Shown here piece after piece: positions 21,101 through 63,324 of a stretch of 64,000 nt of DNA (within the stretch, counting starts at the first letter, position 1; the number at the start of each line of letters is the position of its first letter). Under the pieces are notes generated by a model, which did no database searches, was not told the DNA's origin, and worked only from the letters and a program-made list of their open reading frames with translations. Source of the DNA: Xiphydria camelus (taxonomy: Eukaryota; Arthropoda; Insecta; Hymenoptera; Xiphydriidae); the NCBI GenBank assembly GCA_963678675.1, contig OY783191.1, positions 16,025,096-16,089,095 of the forward strand. Direction: 5' to 3'. Made by a program: the position numbers and the translations under genes.

Positions 21101-24100
21101 CTCCGTATACGCTACACAGAAGATGTAACGCTTTTAACTCCAACTTTTGCCACTAAAGCGCATGACGATACCCATGCACGATCCCTATTGGGACCGTGCA
21201 ACTGCTTGGAGGGGATACGGCGAACGATCGTGCGCAACTAGTGGTGAAGGCTTGAAGTTAGTGGGCACGTCTCTCCATACCTATAACACGTTGACTGCCA
21301 GCCACCACCGCTGCCGGGTTAAAGTACATTATATGGCGGTCAACGTGTCTGAAGGTGAATAAACCGGCCCTAAATGTTATGCTTACTGTTTATTGCAATT
21401 CTATACTTGAGGAGCACAGTTCCAAAACTCGTTTAGTCCATTCGCAGTTTGTCCTATAATTGCTAATAGTTTAGCGATTATAAGACAAACTGCGAATGGA
21501 CTAAATGAGTTTTGGAACTGTGCTCCTCACTTATAAATAGTTGCTATAAAATACACCTGATGAAAAACATTCATATTGTTGTTCACTAATTGGTTTTGCC
21601 GAGGATTTCTATATTCTTGTCGTATTTGGTACTGTATAAAAGTGCCTATTTTTTGCCGACTACTGCCACCAGGTGTCACTGTACGGGTGTTGCACGATCC
21701 CAATACTTGGTGCGCTCTGCGGCGTTGCCGCACTTCACGACTGCGCGCGCAGCAATCTCCATCGTAAGCGAATTTACCAAGATCTCTTAATTACTTGTTA
21801 TAAATTACTGCCCTGATCAATGTGTGAAAATATACCATTTATTCTTTGCATAATAATCTAGCGGTATGCAGTTTCATTACGGTAACCCAATTTTCCAACG
21901 TTTTTTTTCTAAGTTTCTGTGAATTTCCCATAAAAGCACGGGTTAAATTGTCATTTTTATTTCAATTATAACTTTTTAATGAGTTAGTCAAGAGACTTGA
22001 AATTTTGCATACGGCTTTCAAAGATATTAAAGAATCTTGGGAAAAAATTTAAGTAACTTCCTATATGTTTGATAATAGGGGTGAAACATCCTTAAATGTG
22101 TCAGCCGGCATGCGTCAATCGTAGACAGGTAGCGCCGCACGGTTGTACCTCTCGGAGAGCAGTATAGACGCAGCCGCAATTGAAAATTCTACGTCGATTG
22201 GTCACGATGACTCAAGCAAACGAGGCAAAAGTTCTATTTCCTGTTACAGAAGATGAAAAATTAGTAGAATGTGTGTCCGAATTTCCTTGTTTGTATGATT
22301 TATGCAAATCTCCTTTACAAAACAGCCCTCCTCACGTCTCGACTTAACACTTTCGCTGCCGGCGAAATTTTTCAGACTTCATCAAAAACCGGACTGACTT
22401 TTATAATGTAAATTAGTTTATTTTGGTACAAGATGGTCAGAAGAACATGTTTTAAGGCAAATATAACAAAATGGCGCTTATAAACGCTAACACACACACA
22501 GTGCGTGATCGGCCTCCTGAGATGTATAATTTGCCAGAGACCGATCACGCACACGGTGGTATAAGTGGTATAAATTTGGTATAAGTGGGTTTTTTGGGTC
22601 GCTGATCACGAATCTGAAATTAGATTTCAAAAATTCAAAATTTCCCAAATTTGGCACGAATCCGTCAATTTTCGAAAATCTCGTCCGCCATATTGGATCC
22701 GCCATCTTGAATTTTTGAAACCTGACTCCAGATTCGTGATCAGCGACCCAAAAAAACCCCTACACCGTATTTGGTTTAAGTTGAATAAGCCATTAAGAAT
22801 GTTGTCCTTCTAATTCAAGGAAATTTTCCACTGTGCTCCGCTGACCATAAAGGTCACATGAAAAAAATGGTCAAGGACATATTTGAATGTGAAATTTCCC
22901 GCGCTTTTCATTTCCGGTATCAAAAATAGGGGTTCGCATTTAAAAAGATCAATTTGACCTTGATGACCTTGAAAGTCATGGTCAAGGTCAAATCCAATGT
23001 GACCGTTGGGTAGCCAGGGAAAAATCCTAAAAGTTTTGCATTAAACATTTTTCTTTAAAATGATTTCCCGCTGAGATAATCAGCCGTACCGGGAGTTTTT
23101 GAAGACCCTGTATATAGATTAAGAAACTTTTCCCAACTCACCATTCGTTGACGATGTTCCGTGATTTATAAGTTTGTGGATAAATTGAAAATAGTAAGAC
23201 TTTTCATTGCCTTACAAACGTTTCATATACTCTCAGCGTCAACGATTCTGATCGACCCGCCCTGACAGCACACAATATCCTATAGATATACAATGGATGT
23301 CTTTTCGACATTGGGCGGTCCGTTACATGCCCATAGGATGTTTTTTTTAGATCTTTGTGCTATCTGTGCACTTTAGGTAATGGAACTTTATTGAAATCGT
23401 CCAATTATAGTTAAACGGTATGAGCGAATCTTATTTTGTCATGAAAGCTAAACTCACTCACTGGTCCTTCAAGGCAAAACTTCGTTCGAATCTTTCAGCT
23501 ACCGACGACTCCAATAAATTTCCATCGCCCAAAGCGAGTAAATCGAAATCATTGTCGCCGGGTGTACATTATTTACACCAGAGAGGACCTATTTAATCCA
23601 CTGCATATCTCATTTGTTTGTGCAATTCGTCATTAAAAAAAAATCTTTTGAACAAAATTTATCCATCCGCAAGTAATTTTTTTCTTCATATTACTGCGAT
23701 ACGTCTGCACCAAAAATTATGTAATGTTTTAAAAGGGCGTTTTAACCAATTGTCTACAGTATAAAGATACGATTAAAAAGATATGACACTATCAGGCATC
23801 TGCCACATTACAATGTTAAGTGTTTTGCGGACATAATCATGTGCCTAAGAGGTGTCTGAAAAATGCCTATTGGAGGGTGTGGTTATTATACCTGACTGAA
23901 ATATTTCCTCCTCACGAAATAATATCCCTGGAACCTTTCTGAACGGTATTTGTGCTGTGTGTAAAGAGTATACTTTCTTCATTAGTCTCGATAAGTTCTG
24001 TGCATTTTATTTCAAGGAAAATATCGATCAAGAGACACGGTAGTGTCTCGCGGCATGTTCGTTCAATGTCGCCGCGGGCACCCGTGTATCTGCAGGAAAA

Positions 24101-39066: not shown

Positions 39067-39248
39067 TACCATATGTCCGCGATCAAAGAGCCCATAGCAA
39101 TCGAAATCGAAGTCGAACTGCACTCGCGGATGACTACGCATGCGCATTCACGCTTCTCCGGTGATTCTATTGGACGAGGAGACCCACAGAGGTGCTCATG
39201 CAAAACTCGCAATTTTGCTATGGGCTCTTTGATCGCGGACATATGGTA
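39067..39248. repeat. TACCGTATGTCC-family MITE (182 bp)
   Basis: TACCATATGTCCGCGATCAA and its inverse, with arms containing AGAGCCCATAGCAA and ATGCGCATTCACGCTTCTCC. It shares its terminal TA with the CACCCGGG MITE that follows. Confidence 0.8.
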
Positions 39249-39461
39249 CACCCGGGTTCACGGATTCTGAGCATAGTGACTTTTCAAAATGTCATATTTC
39301 AAGGTATACTGACCAATGAATAATTAATTATCATGCTTTCATTAGCCAGGGCAAAGGCCGAATTGGCTAATGAGAGTATCAGATTTAATTGCTAATTGGC
39401 TGTTACGTTTAAAAATTACAATTTGAAAAGTCACTATGTTCAAAATCCGTGAACCCGGGTG
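39249..39461. repeat. CACCCGGG-family MITE, copy 1
   Basis: CACCCGGGTTCACGGATTCT and its inverse, arms with AGTGACTTTTCAAA, TA on both sides. Three other copies: 39663, 39877 and 62523. Confidence 0.82.
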
Positions 39462-49089: not shown

Positions 49090-49330
49090 AGTGCACGTGT
49101 AAAAGCACATGTAAAGGCACATGTAAAAGCACATGTAAAAGCACACGTAAAAGCACATGTAAAAGCACATGTGAAGGCACATGTAAAAGCACGTGTAAAA
49201 TCGTATGTAAAAATCGAAAACTTTCATATGTGCTTTTATATGTGATTTTACACGTGATTTTACATGTGCTTTTACACGTGATTTTACATGTGCTTTTACA
49301 CGTGATTTTACATGTGATTTTACACGTATT
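49090..49330. repeat. 12-bp minisatellite hairpin, left arm
   Basis: About ten GTAAAAGCACAT-like units (49090-49210), then a spacer TCGAAAACTTTC, then about eight inverted units (ATGTGATTTTAC / ATGTGCTTTTAC) to 49330. The derived CKST repeat peptides in either strand are a by-product of the 12-bp period. Confidence 0.9.
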
Positions 49331-49601
49331 CTGATACTCTATATTGTAAACACTTTACTGTGTTTTAAATATTATTTAAATAATAATTTTAATACCACAC
49401 ATACCGGGTGTTTTCCTGGGTTGTTGACATAGGCCAATATGGTGCATAGCAGTTTGTAGACTATAGTATGTACGCTATTGGTCGGAGACGCAAGGACGCC
49501 GAGCGATTGGCTCTGCCTATCGTCGGCAGACGTCAATCATCGCGACAGAAGTTCCCTAGTGCGTAGGCACCGAGCAGACGAGAAAGTATGGCGGTTGACA
49601 C

Positions 49602-50537
49602 TGTCGCGTCTGCATCCAGACTTGACCTAAAACCCCTATAACTTTTGGAAGTTACTAGATTTTTGGCGGCGCATTCAAACTCTTTGTATTAACCTCTAAT
49701 TATTGTCATTTTATTAAGCAAGTAAGGTATAGATGGATTGTAATAGAGAGAAAGAACGAGAACGTCGAAGACTGCGTGATAAGTTAAATAAGTCGCAGGC
49801 CACCGTGGTTTCTATTCGCGAGATTATAAACACCTTTATTGCGTGATGGACAGGGGATCTGAGTCGCGGGCCGCTGCGAGCTCCGTTTGTAAATATGGTA
49901 TCCCCTTTCGCGGACCGATAGGTCGTAGTTAATTTAGCTAGCAAGAACAGTTCTCCTTTCTTTGAGTCACGTAGGCGTGCGCGCATAAGATTTGTCATCG
50001 ATACGCGCTTCGGATTGCGGGAGTTCGTGCGCGGTAGACCCACGGTCGATGAGGGCATGTTTTCTTTCGAGTGCGTGGGATTGTGCGCGCCAGAATCAGG
50101 GTCGATGCGTACTTTCTTCGCACGTGGACGCGTGGAGCGTGGATTAGATCATTGTGCGTAGACGAAGAAAGTGGGAGTAGAGTCCTTGACTACGACTAGC
50201 GTCGAGTATCAGATTGGTTCCCCACATAAGCGCTGAGTATTTGATTGGTTCCCCGTTGTTACCGAGAGGCGGGGACTTTTGATTTAAAAGGATGCACTTT
50301 GCCGCTCGAGGTGCACTCAGATACCGATTTATAACGACAAATTATATTCTAACTATGTGTTAAAATATAATTCATTGGTGATCACCTAATTCTTGAATTA
50401 AGAGTTTTCATTTCTCCACCTGCAATAAAACTCTTCATCTCCCGATCCCGCTCTTTCCGAGCAGAGTGGTTCAGCACTCCACGGGCACGGACCTGCCCCC
50501 TACAAACTGACCAAGAAGACCAGCCCGGCACGCAACA
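49602..50537 (+). mobile_element. solo LTR, copy 1 (936 bp)
   Basis: It begins TGTCGCGTCTGC and ends CACGCAACA, flanked by a 4-bp ACAC duplication. It contains a TATA-like GATTTAAAAG at about 50281 and AATAAA at 50424. TG...CA ends, a 4-bp duplication and absence of gag/pol on either side define a solo LTR of a Gypsy- or BEL-type retrotransposon. The ORFs inside are not genes. Confidence 0.88.
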
Positions 50538-51769
50538 ACACATACGTTTGTTTACAAAGTGGAGTTTTTTTCAGAGTAATTGTATTTTTTGAAAATAAAA
50601 TGTGGTTTTCAAAGTTAATAAAATATTTCCATTCGCGAAACGATATCCCGCTCATGAAATAGAAATAATAGATGCTCGGCTGAGCAAGGGAATAATTTCG
50701 AACGTCTCCTGCAAACATGAAGCAGCGGTGAGTTTTCCACAACATGTCATGATATGAAAAGGATTTATTTACATTCATGGTATCGTTTGGGATAATTTTA
50801 TTAACCTTTCACCGTATTCCTCATGTTACAGCTTTTCGTGTCCTCCGGGGGAGTTGGTGCTCATCGTTGCAATTTCAGCATTTCACGGTGGATTGGATTA
50901 TTGCTCGGCTGAGCAAGGGAATAATTTCGAACGTCTCCTGCAAACATGAAGTAACGGTGAGTTTTCCACAACATGTCATGATATGAAAAGGATTTATTTA
51001 CATTCATGATATCGTTTGGGATAATTTTATTAACCTTTCACCGTATTCCTCATGTTACAGCTTTTCGTGTCCTCCGGGGGAGTTGGTGCTCGTTGTTGCA
51101 AAACACAAAGTCATTAACCATGGTCCTGGTTATCGATGCTTGCTGAAGTATTCAATCACGTTGGTTAGCAGATGGTAATATGAGTCGTATTGGTAAATAA
51201 ATACCTGCACTATATTCTTTTTCTGTATCAATACTATTTTATGTTTCATTTATTTCTATTTCATGAGCGGGATACCAATCGTCCTTCGTCTTTGGCACAT
51301 TTCTCCGTGGAGGCTGATGCACGTCGTCGAACTTTTCCATCATCCATGAAGAATTCATCACTTTCTCTCTAAGTCTACAAATAATTTTTGTACTATTATT
51401 ATCTTTATAAAGTATAAAGAAATTGAATGACTTCAAAACAATTCCTTTTTATTATTCCTCTCGATTTATCGTTACACTTACCCTACTCAAAAATCCTGAG
51501 AACTGCCTGGTCACTGTTATTTTTCACGTCGGTTCACTTGTCTCTACAACTCGTTAATTATTTTACATTTGTCCCAAGATTTATCACCCTTCCTTCATTA
51601 CTCTTTTTAACTGTATTTTTACTATTTATTAAAAAGCGCGTTCGACGGTCGAAATAAACGCGAAGGAAATCGTTTCACGAATGGAAATATTTTATTAACT
51701 TTGAAAACCACCTTTTATTTTCAAAAAATACAATTACTCTGAAAAATTCCACCTTGTAAACAAATTTTT
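50538..51769 (+). repeat. 229-bp tandem duplication with exon-like structure
   Basis: Unit 1 (50673-50901) and unit 2 (50902-51108) repeat CTCGGCTGAGCAAGGGAATA... CATGAAG, a GCG|GTGAGT donor, a short intron-like piece and a CTCATGTTACAG|CTTTTCG acceptor. Flanking this are inverted copies of the ATTCGCGAAACGAT module (50605, 51660). The exon-like parts encode FVSSGGVGAH, which I cannot assign. Confidence 0.6.
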
Positions 51770-52949
51770 GTATCAACCGCCATACTTTCTCGTCTGCTCA
51801 GTGCCTACGCACTAGGGAACTTCTGTCGCGACGATTGACGTCTGCCGACGATAGGCAGAGCCAATCGCTCGGCGTCCTTGCGTCTCCGACCAATAGCGTA
51901 CATACTATAGTCTACAAACTGCTATGCACCATATCGGCCTATGTCAACAACCCAGGAAAACACCCGGTATTGTGATTTATACATGTCAAAGATTACCTAA
52001 TTTAACATCCCCGTCTGTTACAATTTATTGAGAGCGAATAAAAGGAATATATTTTAATCATTTTTTAATCGATTGAAATATGATTTTAATCATTTTAAAT
52101 TGCATCTTTTAACGTTTTAATCGTATCCAATAAATTCTAATCAAAGATGTTTAACAGGGATACGAAATGATATGAAAACATTTCTTATTGAACATGGTCA
52201 CCTTATTTTATTACAATTTTATTTACAAACATTGTATTTAATGGGAATAATAATCATTCAATAACCATATCTTATTAAATAGTTATATATATATTTTTGT
52301 ATTTCTATTTATTCACCATTCTGACTTTAGTACAGTTTACAAAACATAGATGTCTTTACAAGTTATATCTCCCTCGCTGTGCTCTCCCAACTGCAGGTTG
52401 TCTATACCTACTTGCTTTCGCTGCCGCCTCTTCTTTGATCACTTCTCTCGCTAATTTTTCAAATTCCCTACTATAATCGCATCCTTCTGTTACGACATCC
52501 CCCTTTAACAGTTCTGTCATTGCGCTTCTAACATCGCTCGTTTCGCTTATGTTATATATACATATATAAATTGAACAAAGCAATTCTGAACGTTATTACT
52601 ATTTTCATAACTTTCATACAAAAAACAAATCCGTTCCTTCTTATTCCATGAAAAACAACTTATTAACTATTATCTTACTCAATATTACAGTCAATTATCA
52701 CAATAGAATTTCTGGCAGCTTTTCTTTTTTTTATAATTTATTCATTATCCACATAATAGTGATTCAAGGAAATAGAAGGAATGTTTAAATCTGAAGGGAG
52801 AGATTGATACGATTTTTGAATTAATAGAACTAGTGTGAGGAAGGAGACGGTCAGACGTAGGAAACGTAATTGATCTTAGAACAGCACGAATTAATAAAAC
52901 GAAAATGGACTATATTTTGAAATTGACAAAATGATATTATACATACACT

Positions 52950-53192
52950 CTAAGAAAAATCGGGTAAATGCTGCGAAGGGTTGCTGTGATACTCGAGAGA
53001 CAAGCGGATAGAGATTTCGACTGAGCCGTGGTAGAGCAAGGAAGCGACTGATCGTGTCGAGGGCAGAAAGGTCTGTTCCTCTCCTTGAACTTGGGGGAGG
53101 AAAAAGGAAAGTATAGCGAAAGAGAGTGGACGCGCTCGATCCAGGAATTTTTCGTAACGCTGAGGGGCTGTAGGCGACCCTCTACAGGTCAC
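52950..53192 (-). other. 80-codon arm ORF, left copy
   Basis: MTCRGSPTAPQRYEKFLDRA... ends HSNPSQHLPDFS. The right-arm copy (54541-54783, plus strand) differs at only about two residues. The family is not recognised. Conservation is explained by arm identity alone, so it is not evidence of coding. Confidence 0.3.
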
Positions 53193-54540
53193 CTTGGGGT
53201 AGCAGAGTCAGAGGCTGGTTTACAGTTCTGTTTTGAAAGTTGACGGCTCCAACTTTCGAGGAAACCTCGCAATACAATAATTCGCCGACGGTTTGCCGAA
53301 GGCCGGCCGACCGGCACCGTGGGGACGGAATGCTCGCGGTAGAACCATCGAAGTTTCACGAAACAAAATTAAATCGAATAATTCATCTAAAAATAGCAGG
53401 AAATGTCGCACTTTAATTGATACTGCTATATTTCGAATGTTGAGTTAGCTTTGCAAAGGGGAGAAATGACGGATTCTTACCGCTCAGTGTAGTACCTACA
53501 GTAGATGGGCTGAGAAAATCGACTTTGTTGTCACTTTTACTTTACAAGTGTCCGATTTCAATTTTTCTTTTTTTTTAATACTCAGAAAAATATGTAGAAC
53601 AAATGTTACATAAAGCCAAAGTGTGCTTTTTAATTTTTAGTAAAAATTTATTTTTTGTACGACTTTTTCTTTAAATATCTCGAAAACTATTGAGAAGTTA
53701 TCGAGACATGCTGCAGAAAAAATGCGTTTTTACTATTAAATCGTGTTAATGCATTCTTCACGCTCGATAACTGGCGTAAAACCGAAAAAATTGACAAGTT
53801 TTTGATTCCGATGATTGAAATATTTCATTACCTTTAAAACAAAAAAAGAACCATCGAAAAATATCAATTTTTAGAAAAGTTAGAGGCATTTGGTTACGAA
53901 AGCGCGCGGGCGCTACGGCGCGTATTTATATACAAAATGCAAAATCTCGAGAACTATATTCATCGTAATAAAATGAGATAAAAACCAATCGTTTCGTATT
54001 GAAAATCTCTAAATTTTTTCCGCGGCATGTCTCGATAACTTCTCAATAGTTTTCGAGATATTTGAAAAAGCCGTACAAAAAATAAATTTTTATTAAAAAT
54101 TAAAAAGCACACTTTGGCTTTATATAACATTTGTTCTACATATTTTTCTAAGTATTTTTAAAAAAGAAAATTTGAAATCGGACACTTGTAAAGTAAAAGT
54201 GACAACAAAGTCGATCTTCTCAGCCCATCTACTGTCGGTACTACACTGAGCGGTAAGAATCCGTCATTTCTCCCCTTTGCAAAGCTGACTCAACATTCGA
54301 AATATAGCAGTATCAATTAAAGTGCGACATTTCCTGCTATTTTTAGGTAAATTATTCGATTTGATTTTGTTTCATGAAACTTCGATGGTTCTACCGTGAG
54401 CATTCCGTCCCTACGGCGCCGGTCGGCCAGCCTTCGACAAACCGTCGGCGAATTATTGTATTGCGAGGTTTCCTCGAAAGTTGGAGCCGTCAACTTTCAA
54501 AACAGAACTGTAAACCAGCCTCTGACTCTGCTACCCCAAG

Positions 54541-54783: not shown

Positions 54784-55327
54784 AGTGTATGTATAATATC
54801 ATTTTGTCAATTTAAAAATACGGTCCATTTTCGTTTTATTAATTCGTGCTGTTCTAAGATCAATTACGTTTCCTACGTCTGACCAGCTCCTTCCTCACAC
54901 TAGTTCCATTAATTCAAATCGTATCAATCTCTCCCTTCAGATTTAAACATTCCTTCTATTTCCTTGAATCACTATTATGTGGATAATGAAAAAATTATAA
55001 AAAAAAAAGAAAAGCTGCCAGAAATTCTATTGTGATAATTGACTGTAATATTGAGTAAGATAATAGTTAATAAGTTGTTTTTCATGGAATAAGAAGGAAT
55101 GGATTTGTTTATCGTATGAAAATTATGAAAATAGTAATAACGTTCAGAATTGCTTTATTCAATTTATATATGTATATATAACATAAGCGAAACAAGCGAT
55201 GTTAGAAGCGCAATGACAGAACTGTTAAAGGGGGATATCGTAACAGAACGATGCGACTATAGTAGGGAATTTGAAAGATTAGCGAGAGAAGTAATCAAAG
55301 AAGAGGCGGCAGCGAAAGCAAGTAGGT

Positions 55328-55710
55328 ATTGGGACCGTGCAACTGCTTGGAGGGGATACGGCAAACGATCGTGCGCAACTAGTGGTGAAGGCTTGAAGTT
55401 ATACCAGCCACTACCGCTGCCGGGTTAAAGTACATTACGGTATGTCCCACTCTGTACCTATATGGCAGTCAACGTGTCTAAAGGTGAATAAACCGGCCCT
55501 AAATGTTATACTTACTGTTTATTGCAATTCTATACATATAAATAATGGCTATAAAATACACCTGATGAAAAACATTAATATTGTTGTTCACTAATTGGTT
55601 TTGCCGAGGATTTCTATATTTTTATCGTATTTGGTACTGTATAAAAGTGCAGGATTTTTCGCCGACTACTGCCACCAGGTGTCACTGTACGGGTGCTGCA
55701 CGGTCCCAAT
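55328..55710. repeat. ATTGGGACCGTGCAAC-ended element, copy 2
   Basis: Same blocks as 21187-21704 but without the hairpin insert and with a 22-bp extra piece (ACGGTATGTCCCACTCTG). Its right end GGTCCCAAT supplies the octamer used by the next two insertions. Confidence 0.75.
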
Positions 55711-55932
55711 CACGGATATATATATTATACACAGGATAGCCGATAGGGCGATTGGCGGCGTACCAAGTTGACCGTCGCGCATGATCGCTATGTTAAGTTT
55801 TTATAGACTCTGTGACGTCAGTGTTGAACGCTCAATTCTGTCGAATTGTTGTCATCATAGTGTTGATATTGTGACTAGTAAAGTGAATAAGTACAGAAAA
55901 ACAATTCAGGTAACAATTACAGGTTGTTAAAA

Positions 55933-56640
55933 ATGGGACGATGCTGTTTTTGCCATGCTCTGACAACTAAAAAAGTGGTCTCACATTTCATAGGTAAGTA
56001 CTGTCCACTTACAAAATATATTTTTATGGTTATGGCATATAATGGCAATTTAATTTATATTTATATTTATCAATTAGGTTTCTCAACGATCCGAAAAAAT
56101 ACCAAGAATTGATAAAAATATCCCACTAATTGACTGGAAACCCACTAGAACTGATGTACTGTGTTCAAAACATTTTAAAAAAGATTGCTTTGACAAAACT
56201 GGAAGCTATGTGTGATTAAATTTTGATGCAATTCCGACAGTGTTTAACGACCCTCAATCGCTTTGTGTGTATTGTAAACGAGGAAAATGTTATAAAAACG
56301 GGATTTCATTTTTTCGGTACGTAATAATATTATATATAATGAAAAACTTAATCATTTCCGCAATCGATAGAACACTTTATGTACTTTCATTTACATTCTA
56401 ACTTTGAGTGACATTGCCACCAAGTTTATCTAATTTGTATGAAAAATTTTTTGTTTCCCCTAGATTTCCTGTTGAGGAACCTGAAATGTTTCAACGTTGG
56501 TGCCACAATATGGGCAAAGAGAATTAAGAACCAAGAGAGGATAGCTATCTATGTTCACAACACTTTGAACCCTCATGTTTCAAAAAAAATCAGGGGAAAT
56601 ATTTCAAACTAAAAAAAGGGAGTGTACCAACGATGAATCC
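55933..56640 (+). pseudogene. double-THAP protein, several stops
   Basis: First THAP: MGRCCFCHALTTKKVVSHFI, intron, FLNDPKKYQEL... LCSKHFKKDCF... AIPTVF. Second THAP: CVYCKRGKCYKNGISFFR, intron, FPVEEPEMFQRWCHNMGKEN, LCSQHFEPSCFKK, SVPTMN. Each finger is split by an intron at the corresponding place (before F-L/P of the second half), so the pair arose by duplication of a two-exon unit. Stops occur after SH (first), at SYV* and at KEN*. Further exons to about 56950 are weak. Confidence 0.75.
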
Positions 56641-57450
56641 TTTGAAAATATTCAAGGTAAAATTTTTTCAGTATAAATATTAATAATGGTTTATCCACGC
56701 AAGGTTATAACCTTGATTGATTTTTTTTGTTCAGATCCTAGATCCTTATCACCACAATCATTGAACAACGCTGTTTTGATGCAAATACACAGTGATAATA
56801 AAATTGTGGATATTTTGATCAACATTCTACCAATCAAGTATCAGTGAATCCCAATGATGATTTATAAAAAACAAATGTATCAACTAATTGCTCCAATGAT
56901 CAAGAGGAAATGTTGAATAATCTATTGACGCACAACACTGCTGTAATCGAAGAAAATGATTACCATTATTTGCACTGAAAAAAATAAAATTTTACCACAG
57001 CAAGGAGTTGAAAAAATTGAGAGTAACTGTCACTGTGAGCATGTCCGAATGATATAAAAAAAATCGGTAACCATCCAATTTATTTTTCTATTTTTTTTGC
57101 AAAAAATATAATAAAAGAAAAAATGTCATCGTGAAAATTGATTTTTTGAGGTTAAAATACGGTACCGGGGTTAGTATTTCTTTATATAGGGGTGATCAAT
57201 TTAATTGGGAAACCAATGCAATTTATTTCCATTCATTCGAACACGTCTTTTTATATTTATTTATTTATTTTCATACGACAGAATGGATATACGCGACCCT
57301 CGTGCGCGCTCGACAATTGTCACATACACGCTCGCGTGTGTCGGTGAGTGAACATTCGCGCAGGCGCGGTCTAACTTTACTTAACATGGCCGCCCATCAA
57401 TTTCGTACGCGCAGCTCTATGGTGAGAGCATAGGCATCGGCTATCCAGTG

Positions 57451-57729
57451 TACCGTATGTCCGCGATCATTTGAACCATAGGAAAATTGCGAGTTTTGCA
57501 TGAGCACCCCTTTGGGTCTCCTTGTCCAATAGAATCACCGGAGAAGCGTGAATGCGCATGCGTAGTCATCCGCGAGTGTGGCGTCGTCAGCAAGTTCAGA
57601 TCGGTTATCGAAATAATCGATAGCGCATTCACGCTTCTCCGGTGATTCTATTGGACGAGGAGTCCCAAAGGGGTGCTCATGCAAAACTCGCAATTTTCCT
57701 ATGGTTCAAATGATCGCGGACATACGGTA
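57451..57729. repeat. TACCGTATGTCC-family MITE in the P-like TIR
   Basis: TACCGTATGTCCGCGATCAT and ATGATCGCGGACATACGGTA ends. The right arm lost about 40 bp compared with the intact copy at 62768. It is inserted at a TA inside the right terminal repeat of the P-like element. Confidence 0.85.
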
Positions 57730-57753
57730 TAATATATAATCCGTGGTCCCAAT

Positions 57754-59095
57754 CAGCCCCCTGCAACTCTGCGTTTCGCAGGGCCACACCGTTGTCGCCA
57801 ACCGCGTGGTGGCGCAGTGTCGCTGGCCCGGCTGAAAGCGGGCGAATGAGGTGTGAATGGAGGGACTTGAGTGCAATGAAGCATTATTCCATTTTGTAAT
57901 AAATATGTAGGGATAAGGAATTTTATGAAGTAATAGAAATAGTCCAGTAAATGTTCGAACGAATTTTATGAGCCAGCGCAGCCAACAGCCAGCAGCCAGC
58001 AGCAGCCAACACAGGGCCAGCGTGTAGGGCGCCACGTAGCGGATTAGTACGACTGGCGACTGTCGCGTCTGCATCCAGACTTGACCTAAAATCCCCATAA
58101 CTTTTTGAAATTACTAGATTTTTGGCGGCGCATTCAAACACTTTGTATTAACCTCTAATTATTGTCATTTTATTAAGCAAGTAAGGTATAGATGGATTGT
58201 AATAGAGGGAAAGAACGAGAACGTCGAAGACTGCGTGATAAGTTAAATAAGTCGCAGGCCACCGTGGTTTCTATTCGCAAGATTATAAACAACTTTATTG
58301 CGTGATGGACAGGGGATCTGAGTCGCAAGCCGCTGCGAACTCTCCGTTTGTAAATATAATATCCCCTTTCGCGGACCGATAGGTCGTAGTTAATTTAGCT
58401 AGCAAGAACAGTTCTCCTTTCTTTGAGTCACGTAGGCGTGCGCGCATAAGATTTGTCATCGATACGCGCTTCGGATTGCGGGAGTTCGTGCGCGGTAGAC
58501 CCACGGTCGATGAGGGCATGTTTTCTTCCGAGTGCGTGGGATTGTGCGCGCCAGAGTCAAGGTCGATGCGTACTTTCTTCGCACGTGGACGCGTGGAGCG
58601 TGGATTAGATCATTGTGCGTAGACGGAGAAAGTGGGAGTAGAGTCCTTGACTACGACTAGCGTCGAGTATCAGATTGGTTCCCCACATTAGCGCTGAGTA
58701 TTTGATTGGTTCCCCACATTAGCGCTGAGTATTTGATTGGTTCCCCGTTGTTACCGAGAGGCGGGGACTTTTGATTTAAAAGGATGCACTTTGCCGCTCG
58801 AGGTGCACTCAGATACCGATTTATAACGACAAATTATATTCCAACTATGTGTTAAAATATAATTCATTGGTGATCACCTAATTCTTGTATTAAGAGTTTT
58901 CATTTCTCCACCTGCAATAAAACTCTTCATCTCCCGATCCCGCTCTTTTCGAGCAGAGTGGTTCAGCACTCCACGGGCACGGACCTGCCCCCTATAAACG
59001 GACCAAGAAGACCAGCCCGGCACGCAACACGACAAAGCGTGGTCAAAGATATCTAATGGGAATATATATATACGTGTAAGTGTTGCAGGGGGCTG
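57754..59095. mobile_element. CAGCCCCCTGCAAC-ended element (hAT/P-like), split by LTR
   Basis: CAGCCCCCTGCAAC and GTTGCAGGGGGCTG bound the element and GTCCCAAT flanks it on both sides (57746-57753, 59096-59103). Without the solo LTR it is 369 bp, non-coding, with a CAGCCAGCAGCCAGCAGC-type microsatellite near 57978. Confidence 0.8.
58061..59029 (+). mobile_element. solo LTR, copy 2 (969 bp)
   Basis: Same LTR family as 49602-50537, same orientation, flanked by CGAC on both sides (58057-58060, 59030-59033). The 33-bp length difference is a tandem duplication of ATTGGTTCCCCACATTAGCG. Different duplications show two independent insertions, not the two LTRs of one element. Confidence 0.9.
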
Positions 59096-59629
59096 GTCCC
59101 AATAGACAACCTGCAGTAGGGAGAGCACAGCGAGGGCGATATAACTTGTAGACATCTATGTTTTGTAAGCTGTACTAAAGTCAGAATGGTGAATAAATAG
59201 AAATACAAAAAAATATATATATATAACTATTTAATAAGATATGATGTATTGAATGATTATTATCCCCATTAAGTATAGTTTGTAAATAAAATTGTAATAA
59301 AATAAGGTGACCATGTTCAATAAGAAATGTTTTCATATCATTTCGTATCCCTGTTAAACATCTCTGATTAGAATTTATTGGAAACGATTAAAACGTTAAA
59401 AAATGCAATTTAAAATGACTAAAATCATATTTCAATCGATTAAAAAACGATTGAAATATATTCCTTTTATTCGTTCTCAATAAATTGTAACAGACGGGGA
59501 TGTTACATTAGGTAATCTTTGACATGTATAAATCACAATATGTGGTATTAAAATTATTATTTAAATAATATTTAAAAAACACAGTAAAGTGTTTACAATA
59601 TAGAGTATCAGAGTACGTGTTAAATTACA

Positions 59630-59905
59630 TGTAAAATGACGTGTAAAAGCACATGTAAAATCACGTGTAAAAGCACGTGTAAAATCACGTGTAAAATCAC
59701 GTGTAAAAGCACGTGTAAAATCACGTGTAAAAGCACATGTGAAAGTTTTCGATTTTTACATACGATTTTACACGTGCTTTTACGTGTGCTTTTACATGTG
59801 CCTTTACATGTGCTTTTACACGTGCTTTTACATGTGCTTTTACGTTTGCTTTTACGTGTGCTTTTACATGTGTTTTTACATGTGCTTTTACACGTGCACT
59901 TTTTC
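59630..59905. repeat. 12-bp minisatellite hairpin, right arm
   Basis: GTGTAAAATCAC/GTGTAAAAGCAC units then, past GTTTTCGATTTTTACATACG, inverted ACATGTGCTTTT units. Inverse image of 49090-49330 with different unit numbers. Its outer edge GTGCACTTTTTCAGTAGGG matches the left arm at 49078. Confidence 0.9.
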
Positions 59906-62709: not shown

Positions 62710-62767
62710 GTCCCCCTAGTGTTGCGTGGAATGTCCACGATGTCGTGCGCGCGTCGACAATTTGAGG

Positions 62768-63087
62768 TACCGTATGTCCGCGATCATTTGAACCATAGGA
62801 AAATTGCGAGCTTTGCATGAGCACCCCTTTGGGTCTCCTCGTCCAATAGAATCACCGGAGAAGCGTGAATGCGCATGCGTAGTCATCCGCGAGTGTGGCG
62901 TCGTCAGCAAGTTCAGATCGATTATTTCGATAACCGATCTGAACTTGCTGACGACGCCACACTCGCGGATGACTACGCATGCGCATTCACGCTTCTCCGG
63001 TGATTCTATTGGACAAGGAGACCCAAAGGGGTGCTCATGCAAAACTCGCAATTTTCCTATGGTTCAAATGATCGCGGACATACGGTA
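62768..63087. repeat. 320-bp near-perfect hairpin, TACCGTATGTCC family
   Basis: The two 155-bp arms are almost identical inverses (one or two mismatches) around a loop of about 9 bases at 62927 (GATTATTTCGATAACC). Ends TACCGTATGTCCGCGATCAT / ATGATCGCGGACATACGGTA. Most intact member of the family in the window. Confidence 0.92.
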
Positions 63088-63324
63088 TATAGATTGGGAA
63101 TTAGTCCTATCGTTTGGAAATAGTTTGGGGATATTTAGGAAATTAGTTTCAGATTTTGGGAAACGTTAATTAATATAAATTAATTTATTATAAATTATTT
63201 TTTACTTGACCGTATACCTAGATAGCAAATATTAATTAGAAATTGTCAAATTACAGACGAATCAATTGGAAATCATTTGGGGAATTGAACCCTATTGTTA
63301 ATTTCATTTGAGAAATAATACTTA

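What the first reader, a model, noticed from the sequence alone, without database searches (positions are those of the whole stretch)
55703..59103. Two different elements inserted one after the other in the same octamer GTCCCAAT
GTCCCAAT occurs at 55703, 57746 and 59096. A THAP-bearing P-like element (2,035 bp) lies between the first two and a CAGCCCCC element between the last two. Both make 8-bp duplications of the identical sequence, which is itself the end of an ATTGGGACC element. This points to strong sequence-specific targeting or use of a transposon end as a hot spot.
Basis: seen in the sequence. Interest (0 to 1): 0.75.

Follow-up and report, generated by a model that had tools for sequence, protein, structure and literature searches.

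The report
Two P-type transposons sharing one octamer
Two different relatives of the fruit-fly P element landed one after the other in the same eight-letter site at the edge of an older small transposon; both families mildly prefer that kind of site, and this looks like a tidy coincidence rather than precise targeting.

Summary
GTCCCAAT stands at 55703, 57746 and 59096, with a 2,035-bp THAP-bearing element between the first two and a 1,342-bp CAGCCCCC element (H) between the last two. An inverted paralogue about 3 kb away lacks all three elements. The strong interpretation fails. H duplicates many octamers, with a weak palindromic consensus GTCNNGAC; 1 of 81 sampled sites, the window's own, is GTCCCAAT, and no other H end with at most one mismatch to the joined pattern follows GTCCCAAT genome-wide. 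The THAP family (P) has five perfect 8-bp duplications, all different. About 580 ends of the ATTGGGACC element were counted (643 hits, 59 control); no second one bearing P or H at the octamer was found. The useful correction: H is not a hAT. A 4.8-kb element with H ends, a perfect duplication and H-like subterminal DNA encodes a P-type RNase H domain. Both guests are thus P-superfamily elements with a shared loose target preference; the second apparently used the octamer that the first had duplicated. Which came first is unresolved.

The parts
55329..55709 (+). ATTGGGACC element: small inverted-repeat element with TIR TTGGGACCGTGCA, flanked by TA; its right TA is now split off to 59103-59104
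   Evidence: Second copy at 21187-21704; 643 genome hits to its end against 59 control hits; 96 of 100 listed ends followed by A
55703..55710 (+). GTCCCAAT, first copy: left target duplication of the P-like element, and the end of the ATTGGGACC element
55711..57745 (+). P-superfamily element, non-autonomous, TIR CACGGATATATATATTATACACNGGATAGCCGAT, remnants of two THAP domains, no RNase H domain seen
   Evidence: THAP PF05485 E 3.9e-6 at 56528-56683 and E 0.0068 at 56078-56215; no transposase domain in the 9 plus-strand ORFs scanned; 20 family matches in the genome; clean copy 1,760 bp
56078..56215 (+). remnant of THAP domain 1 (below the Pfam cut-off)
56528..56683 (+). remnant of THAP domain 2 (above the Pfam cut-off)
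57453..57727 (.). foldback element nested in the P-like element, TA at 57451-57452 and 57728-57729 (boundaries read by eye)
   Evidence: 116-nt arms 95% complementary; absent from the clean P copy L010; related stretches at 62767-63089 and 39121-39251
57746..57753 (+). GTCCCAAT, second copy: shared between the P-like element and H
57754..59095 (+). H element (CAGCCCCCTGCAAC ends), a non-autonomous P-superfamily element; 369 bp without its nested insert
   Evidence: 259 candidates in the genome, 40 scored; duplications; full-length relative with P-type transposase domain
58061..59029 (.). 969-bp element nested in H with TG...CA ends and duplication CGAC (58057-58060 and 59030-59033), read as a solo LTR; related copies at 49602-50537 (duplication ACAC) and in a P copy, L037 (duplication ATAC)
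   Evidence: boundaries read by eye
59096..59103 (+). GTCCCAAT, third copy: right target duplication of H; its T plus A59104 is the right TA of the ATTGGGACC element
51968..53723 (-). inverted paralogue of the flanks (94.6% and 96.1%), with none of the three elements at the junction near 52403-52406 (reads AGGTATAGAC)

Best explanation
An ATTGGGACC element was hit at its right end by one P-superfamily element, which duplicated the 8 bp GTCCCAAT. A second P-superfamily element of a different family then inserted into one of the two resulting octamers, in exact register, making the third copy. Both were ordinary cut-and-paste insertions by P-type transposases that make 8-bp staggered cuts and weakly prefer palindromic GTCNNGAC-like sites. 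An insertion restores the octamer on each side, so the preferred site stays available. Shown: the three octamers, the empty paralogue, the two families, their 8-bp duplications, the H target consensus, and the P-type transposase domain inside an H-ended element. Inferred: the cut-and-paste steps, that the second guest used a duplicated octamer in a separate event, and that the shared preference (about 14-fold by the H matrix) helped this octamer to be reused. The order of P and H is unknown.
For: Octamers and ends. Empty inverted paralogue. P family: besides GTCCCAAT, perfect duplications GTTTCAAC and GTTGATAC, and GGTAAGAT and GTGGTGAT obtained by pairing left flanks with right ends; the last pair spans 9.6 kb and its pairing is inferred. 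H family: of 30 loci, 21 have perfect 8-bp duplications (the window copy and L066 with long inserts among them), 6 have one mismatch, 1 two, 1 seven, and in 1 no right end was found; where several right ends were possible the one with the better duplication was taken. 81 sites give consensus GTCNNGAC. GTCCCAAT scores 3.83 bits on the H matrix made without it, top 0.8% of window octamers. The four other perfect P duplications score high on the H matrix (0 of 200,000 random draws reach their mean), and so do 13 further P flanks, unpaired or mismatched (6 of 200,000). H is P-type: PF21787 at C1:16892594-16893007 (E 6.7e-31) lies between H ends at C1:16890565 and C1:16895374 with duplication CGCCAGAC; both subterminal regions align with the H MITE (scores 126 and 355 against maxima 26 and 29 of 100 shuffles). 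The published P-element consensus GTCCGGAC (PMC3276498 Table 4, passages seen) scores 6.5 bits on the H matrix, near its maximum.
Against: No second instance of reuse was found: two H elements exactly 8 bp apart gave 0 hits with up to 3 mismatches, so reuse of duplicated octamers is not shown to be general. By a rough estimate (about 170 H copies from ends over control; 40 P octamers; 14-fold weight; 357 Mb) this very pair would be expected about 0.0003 times, so a post hoc coincidence is being accepted. Some P flanks score poorly on the H matrix (ACATGTGT -2.9, TCTGTGCG -1.7, CGTTGCGG -0.4). The H matrix itself is weak (2.3 bits in all).
Confidence: 0.85

Rival explanations
1. Strong site specificity: one or both families target GTCCCAAT, or the ATTGGGACC element end, as a hot spot.
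For: Three identical octamers in exact register; GTCCCAAT is among the top 0.8% of octamers for the H matrix.
Against: 1 of 81 H sites and 1 of 5 perfect P duplications, in each case the window itself; about 580 ATTGGGACC ends counted and no second joined case with P or H among the hits at up to 3 mismatches. In one search (41 hits, 34 in the control) three hits at 3 mismatches hold GTCCCAAT before an imperfect H-like end, none preceded by the G of the ATTGGGACC end; they were not read. A look-alike, five copies of GTCCAAAT-CAGTCCCCTG, share their outer flank and so look like copies of one insertion.
Confidence: 0.04
2. The two guests are a P element and a hAT element whose consensus sites happen to overlap (hobo GTNCGNAC and P GTCCGGAC are published, PMC3276498 Table 4).
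For: 8-bp duplications and CAG...CTG ends are compatible with hAT; hAT dimerisation domains exist in the genome (22 matches to PF05699).
Against: None of the 22 lies in the full-length H-ended element, whereas a P-type RNase H domain does, with H-like subterminal DNA on both sides. A second P-type hit lies 1.9 kb inside another H end on C21, whose other end was not seen. Only one hAT domain model was searched.
Confidence: 0.05
3. P and H entered separate alleles of the same octamer and were brought together by recombination.
For: Would also give three octamers in register; nothing in the sequence excludes it.
Against: Needs unequal exchange within the 8 bp; the direct repeat found across the two junctions is 22 bp at 77% and consists mainly of the octamer.
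Confidence: 0.05

Closest known systems
Drosophila P element and insect P-superfamily elements with their MITEs (PMC1562414, PMC7776569; passages seen)
   Same: 8-bp duplications, THAP domain, roughly 31-bp inverted repeats in the CACGGAT family, P-type RNase H domain in the full-length relative of H, MITEs whose ends match a full-length P element
   Different: H has short 14-bp terminal repeats, nearer to the 13-bp repeats reported for the zebrafish THAP9 element; in the window copies no catalytic domain was seen
Target motifs of the P superfamily: P GTCCGGAC, 1360 GTTNAAC (PMC3276498, passages), Galileo GTATTAC (PMC4168063, passages)
   Same: Palindromic GT...AC octamer or heptamer preference; H consensus GTCNNGAC
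   Different: The H preference is weak, at most 0.48 bits at any position; the published strengths were not compared
Double P insertions at one 8-bp site in Drosophila, singed-weak (recalled; two library searches did not show it: one search held no paper, one search listed 12 of 21)
   Same: Two elements separated by one copy of the octamer (recalled)
   Different: There both elements belong to one family (recalled); here two families

Membership tests
P superfamily (55711-57745) | 8-bp target duplication | tested here: met
   Five perfect pairs: window, L010, L035, C20:11600104-11602092, C1:26883241-26892824; other read copies have lost, damaged or unmatched ends
P superfamily (55711-57745) | THAP domain | tested here: met
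   PF05485 E 3.9e-6, above cut-off, at 56528-56683; a second, weak remnant below cut-off
P superfamily (55711-57745) | Terminal inverted repeats of about 31 bp | tested here: met
   34 bp at 91%, window left end against the right end of the clean copy L010
P superfamily (55711-57745) | P-type RNase H transposase domain in an autonomous family member | tested here: inconclusive
   None in 9 plus-strand ORFs of this short, decayed copy; no longer family member was read, though a PF21787 match lies about 8 kb from a P fragment on C14
P superfamily (H, 57754-59095) | 8-bp target duplication | tested here: met
   21 of 30 loci perfect, 6 with one mismatch, 1 with two, 1 with seven, 1 without a right end found
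P superfamily (H, 57754-59095) | Full-length relative with P-type transposase | tested here: met
   PF21787 E 6.7e-31 inside the C1 H-ended element; scanned alone E 3.4e-33; subterminal homology on both sides. Only 1,024 bases of that element were read
P superfamily (H, 57754-59095) | THAP domain in the full-length relative | tested here: inconclusive
   Only 300 bases at its 5' side were read; an ATG there opens MPRCKVLGCTV, translated by eye from L079; the whole domain was not read
hAT (H) | hAT transposase in a full-length relative | tested here: not met
   22 PF05699 matches, none inside the C1 element; other hAT models not searched
Tc1/mariner-like MITE (55329-55709) | TA target duplication | tested here: inconclusive
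   96 of 100 listed ends followed by A, but the empty paralogue reads TATA rather than TA
Tc1/mariner-like MITE (55329-55709) | Related transposase | not tested
   No search was made

The most novel reading that the evidence does not exclude
P-superfamily transposases may treat the octamer duplicated by another P-superfamily insertion as a favoured target, across families, so that elements stack in register.
Probability: 0.07. Interest if true: 0.5.

Novelty: new member of a known kind. Interest (0 to 1): 0.28.

Why it matters
It places an abundant MITE family (H) in the P superfamily rather than hAT, where its CAG...CTG ends and 8-bp duplications would have put it, and adds target data for two P-superfamily families. 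It shows that a GTC..GAC preference like that of Drosophila P holds for a family in another genome, and gives a clean case of target reuse that needs no special targeting.

Tried and rejected
Tried without result: a protein search with a window ORF to place the host (585 candidates, none at E 0.001). Literature searches for insertion into another element's duplication (2 papers; 10 of 167 listed) and for the singed-weak precedent (none; 12 of 21 listed) showed no paper of that kind in their listings; this is not a claim that none is in print. Rejected: that GTCCAAAT-CAGTCCCCTG, seen 5 times, shows site specificity; one search found one shared outer flank. Rejected: C14:12579886, where an ATTGGGACC end is followed by AGCCCCTGCA, as a second H insertion; the 471 bases fetched show no H. 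The three other listed ends not followed by A, besides the window, were fetched (201-281 bases each) and show neither P nor H. The order of P and H could not be settled: all three octamers are identical.

Limits. A few of the 81 may be copies of one insertion: C14:6514793 and C29:18671417 share flanks, and GCCGTCAC occurs twice. The listing favours sites with A two bases outside the octamer. Searches used 77 of these sites, without the window and without a few doubtful or repeated ones. One search scored 11 P flanks as a set and left others out; one search repeats this with 4 perfect and 13 further flanks. One search listed 100 of 643 hits (59 control). One search scored 40 of 259 candidates and gave 30 loci. 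One search read 18 P loci; those with lost, damaged or unmatched ends gave no duplication: L034 and L043, one duplicated locus, have GTGTGACC against GGCTGACC, and L033 was first unmatched (GGTAAGAT against GTGCAGCT) and then matched by a second right end.

Full report
What is there. The window lies on contig C1 (16025096-16089095) of a 357-Mb, 38-contig genome. The host was not identified; an animal, perhaps an insect, is my guess from the mix of elements. GTCCCAAT is at 55703, 57746 and 59096 on the plus strand, and its reverse complement at 55328 and 21187. The layout is: ATTGGGACC element - octamer - P-like element - octamer - CAGCCCCC element (H) - octamer - flank.

Real insertions. The flanks have an inverted paralogue at 51968-53723 (94.6% and 96.1% identity) that joins them directly as AGGTATAGAC, without any of the three elements. 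The ATTGGGACC element has a second copy at 21187-21704, itself interrupted by another insert but without P or H, and several hundred ends in the genome (643 matches, 59 in the control).

The P-like element. It has an 8-bp duplication, THAP remnants and 34-bp inverted repeats, judged against a clean 1,760-bp copy. Its extra length in the window is a 275-bp foldback element inserted at a TA. The family search scored 20 matches. Perfect duplications are GTCCCAAT (window), GTTTCAAC, GTTGATAC, GGTAAGAT and GTGGTGAT, that is G(T/G)NNNNA(C/T). The GTGGTGAT pair lies 9.6 kb apart and its pairing is inferred. One duplicated locus (L034 and L043) has GTGTGACC against GGCTGACC; other copies have an end lost or unmatched.

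The H element. Without a nested 969-bp TG...CA element with a 4-bp CGAC duplication, read as a solo LTR, it is 369 bp, like the clean copy L071. Of 30 loci, 21 have perfect 8-bp duplications and 6 one mismatch. The end pattern gave 717 hits against 378 in the reversed control; 98 of the 100 listed rows collapse to 81 sites with symmetric frequencies G 0.51, T 0.62, C 0.43 at the first three positions, that is GTCNNGAC. GTCNNNAY occurs, on either strand, at 12 of 80 sites (window left out) against 0.3% of window octamers. GTCCCAAT occurs once among the 81, in the window, and genome-wide no other GTCCCAAT stands before an H end with at most one mismatch to the joined pattern.

H belongs to the P superfamily. 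Among 86 matches to the P-type RNase H domain PF21787, one lies inside a 4.8-kb element on C1 bounded by two H ends with the perfect duplication CGCCAGAC. Of this element 1,024 bases were read: 107 bp at one end and 219 bp at the other align with the H MITE, in inverted orientation, and the domain alone scores E 3.4e-33. None of 22 matches to the hAT domain PF05699 lies there. Two adjacent PF21787 pieces on C21 lie 1.9 kb inside another H end, close to the 2.0 kb on C1.

Is the site special? GTCCCAAT has the left half of GTCNNGAC and A at position 7; it scores 3.83 bits, top 0.8% of window octamers, on an H matrix made without it. The four other perfect P duplications score high on that kind of matrix (0 of 200,000 draws reach their mean), and 13 further P flanks, some of which score badly, still do as a set (6 of 200,000). 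The published Drosophila P consensus GTCCGGAC (PMC3276498 Table 4, passages) scores 6.5 bits. In that paper 178 of 1,226 natural P insertions fall exactly on sites hit in mutagenesis, so exact reuse of a site by P elements is known. Against a hot spot: of the 100 listed ATTGGGACC ends one, the window's, bears P and none bears H; joined patterns found the window at 0 mismatches and nothing else below 3 for P (control 10 hits, found 9) or below 2 for H (control 34 hits, found 41), and the right-end list of P shows the octamer only in the window. Two H elements separated by exactly 8 bp were not found.

Conclusion. Most likely two ordinary insertions by related transposases with a loose common preference, the second into an octamer left by the first. 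Order, the time between the events, and the reason for this exact reuse beyond a roughly 14-fold preference are not shown.

Noticed in passing
52403-52406 and 55327-55328: The empty paralogue reads AGGTATAGAC; a TA-duplicating element at this site should leave AGGTAGAC when absent. Either the paralogue is an excision footprint that kept both TAs, or the ATTGGGACC family duplicates AT within TATA.
   Followed up: partly
49396-51974: Element with 206-bp inverted repeats (97.6%) in the paralogous arm, carrying its own copy of the 969-bp TG...CA element with an ACAC duplication.
   Followed up: partly
59605-59893: Array of 12-bp units (TTTTACACGTGC type) that turns over into its reverse complement, forming a 140-nt inverted repeat at 80%; a similar array lies near 49094-49330.
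   Followed up: no
G000 C6:26820733, C28:6470434, C28:6515664, C28:9723502, C28:11474312: Five copies of a related end CAGTCCCCTGCAACTT after GTCCAAAT with nearly the same outer flank; a PF21787 match lies about 3 kb from the C28:6515664 end.
   Followed up: partly
L034 and L043: P copies in a duplicated locus whose left flank GGCTGTGTGACC looks like the right flank GGCTGACC with four bases added.
   Followed up: no
L010 and L033 flanks: Two P copies inserted a few bases apart relative to what looks like the same flanking repeat, GTGTGATGGCCTTAAG.
   Followed up: no
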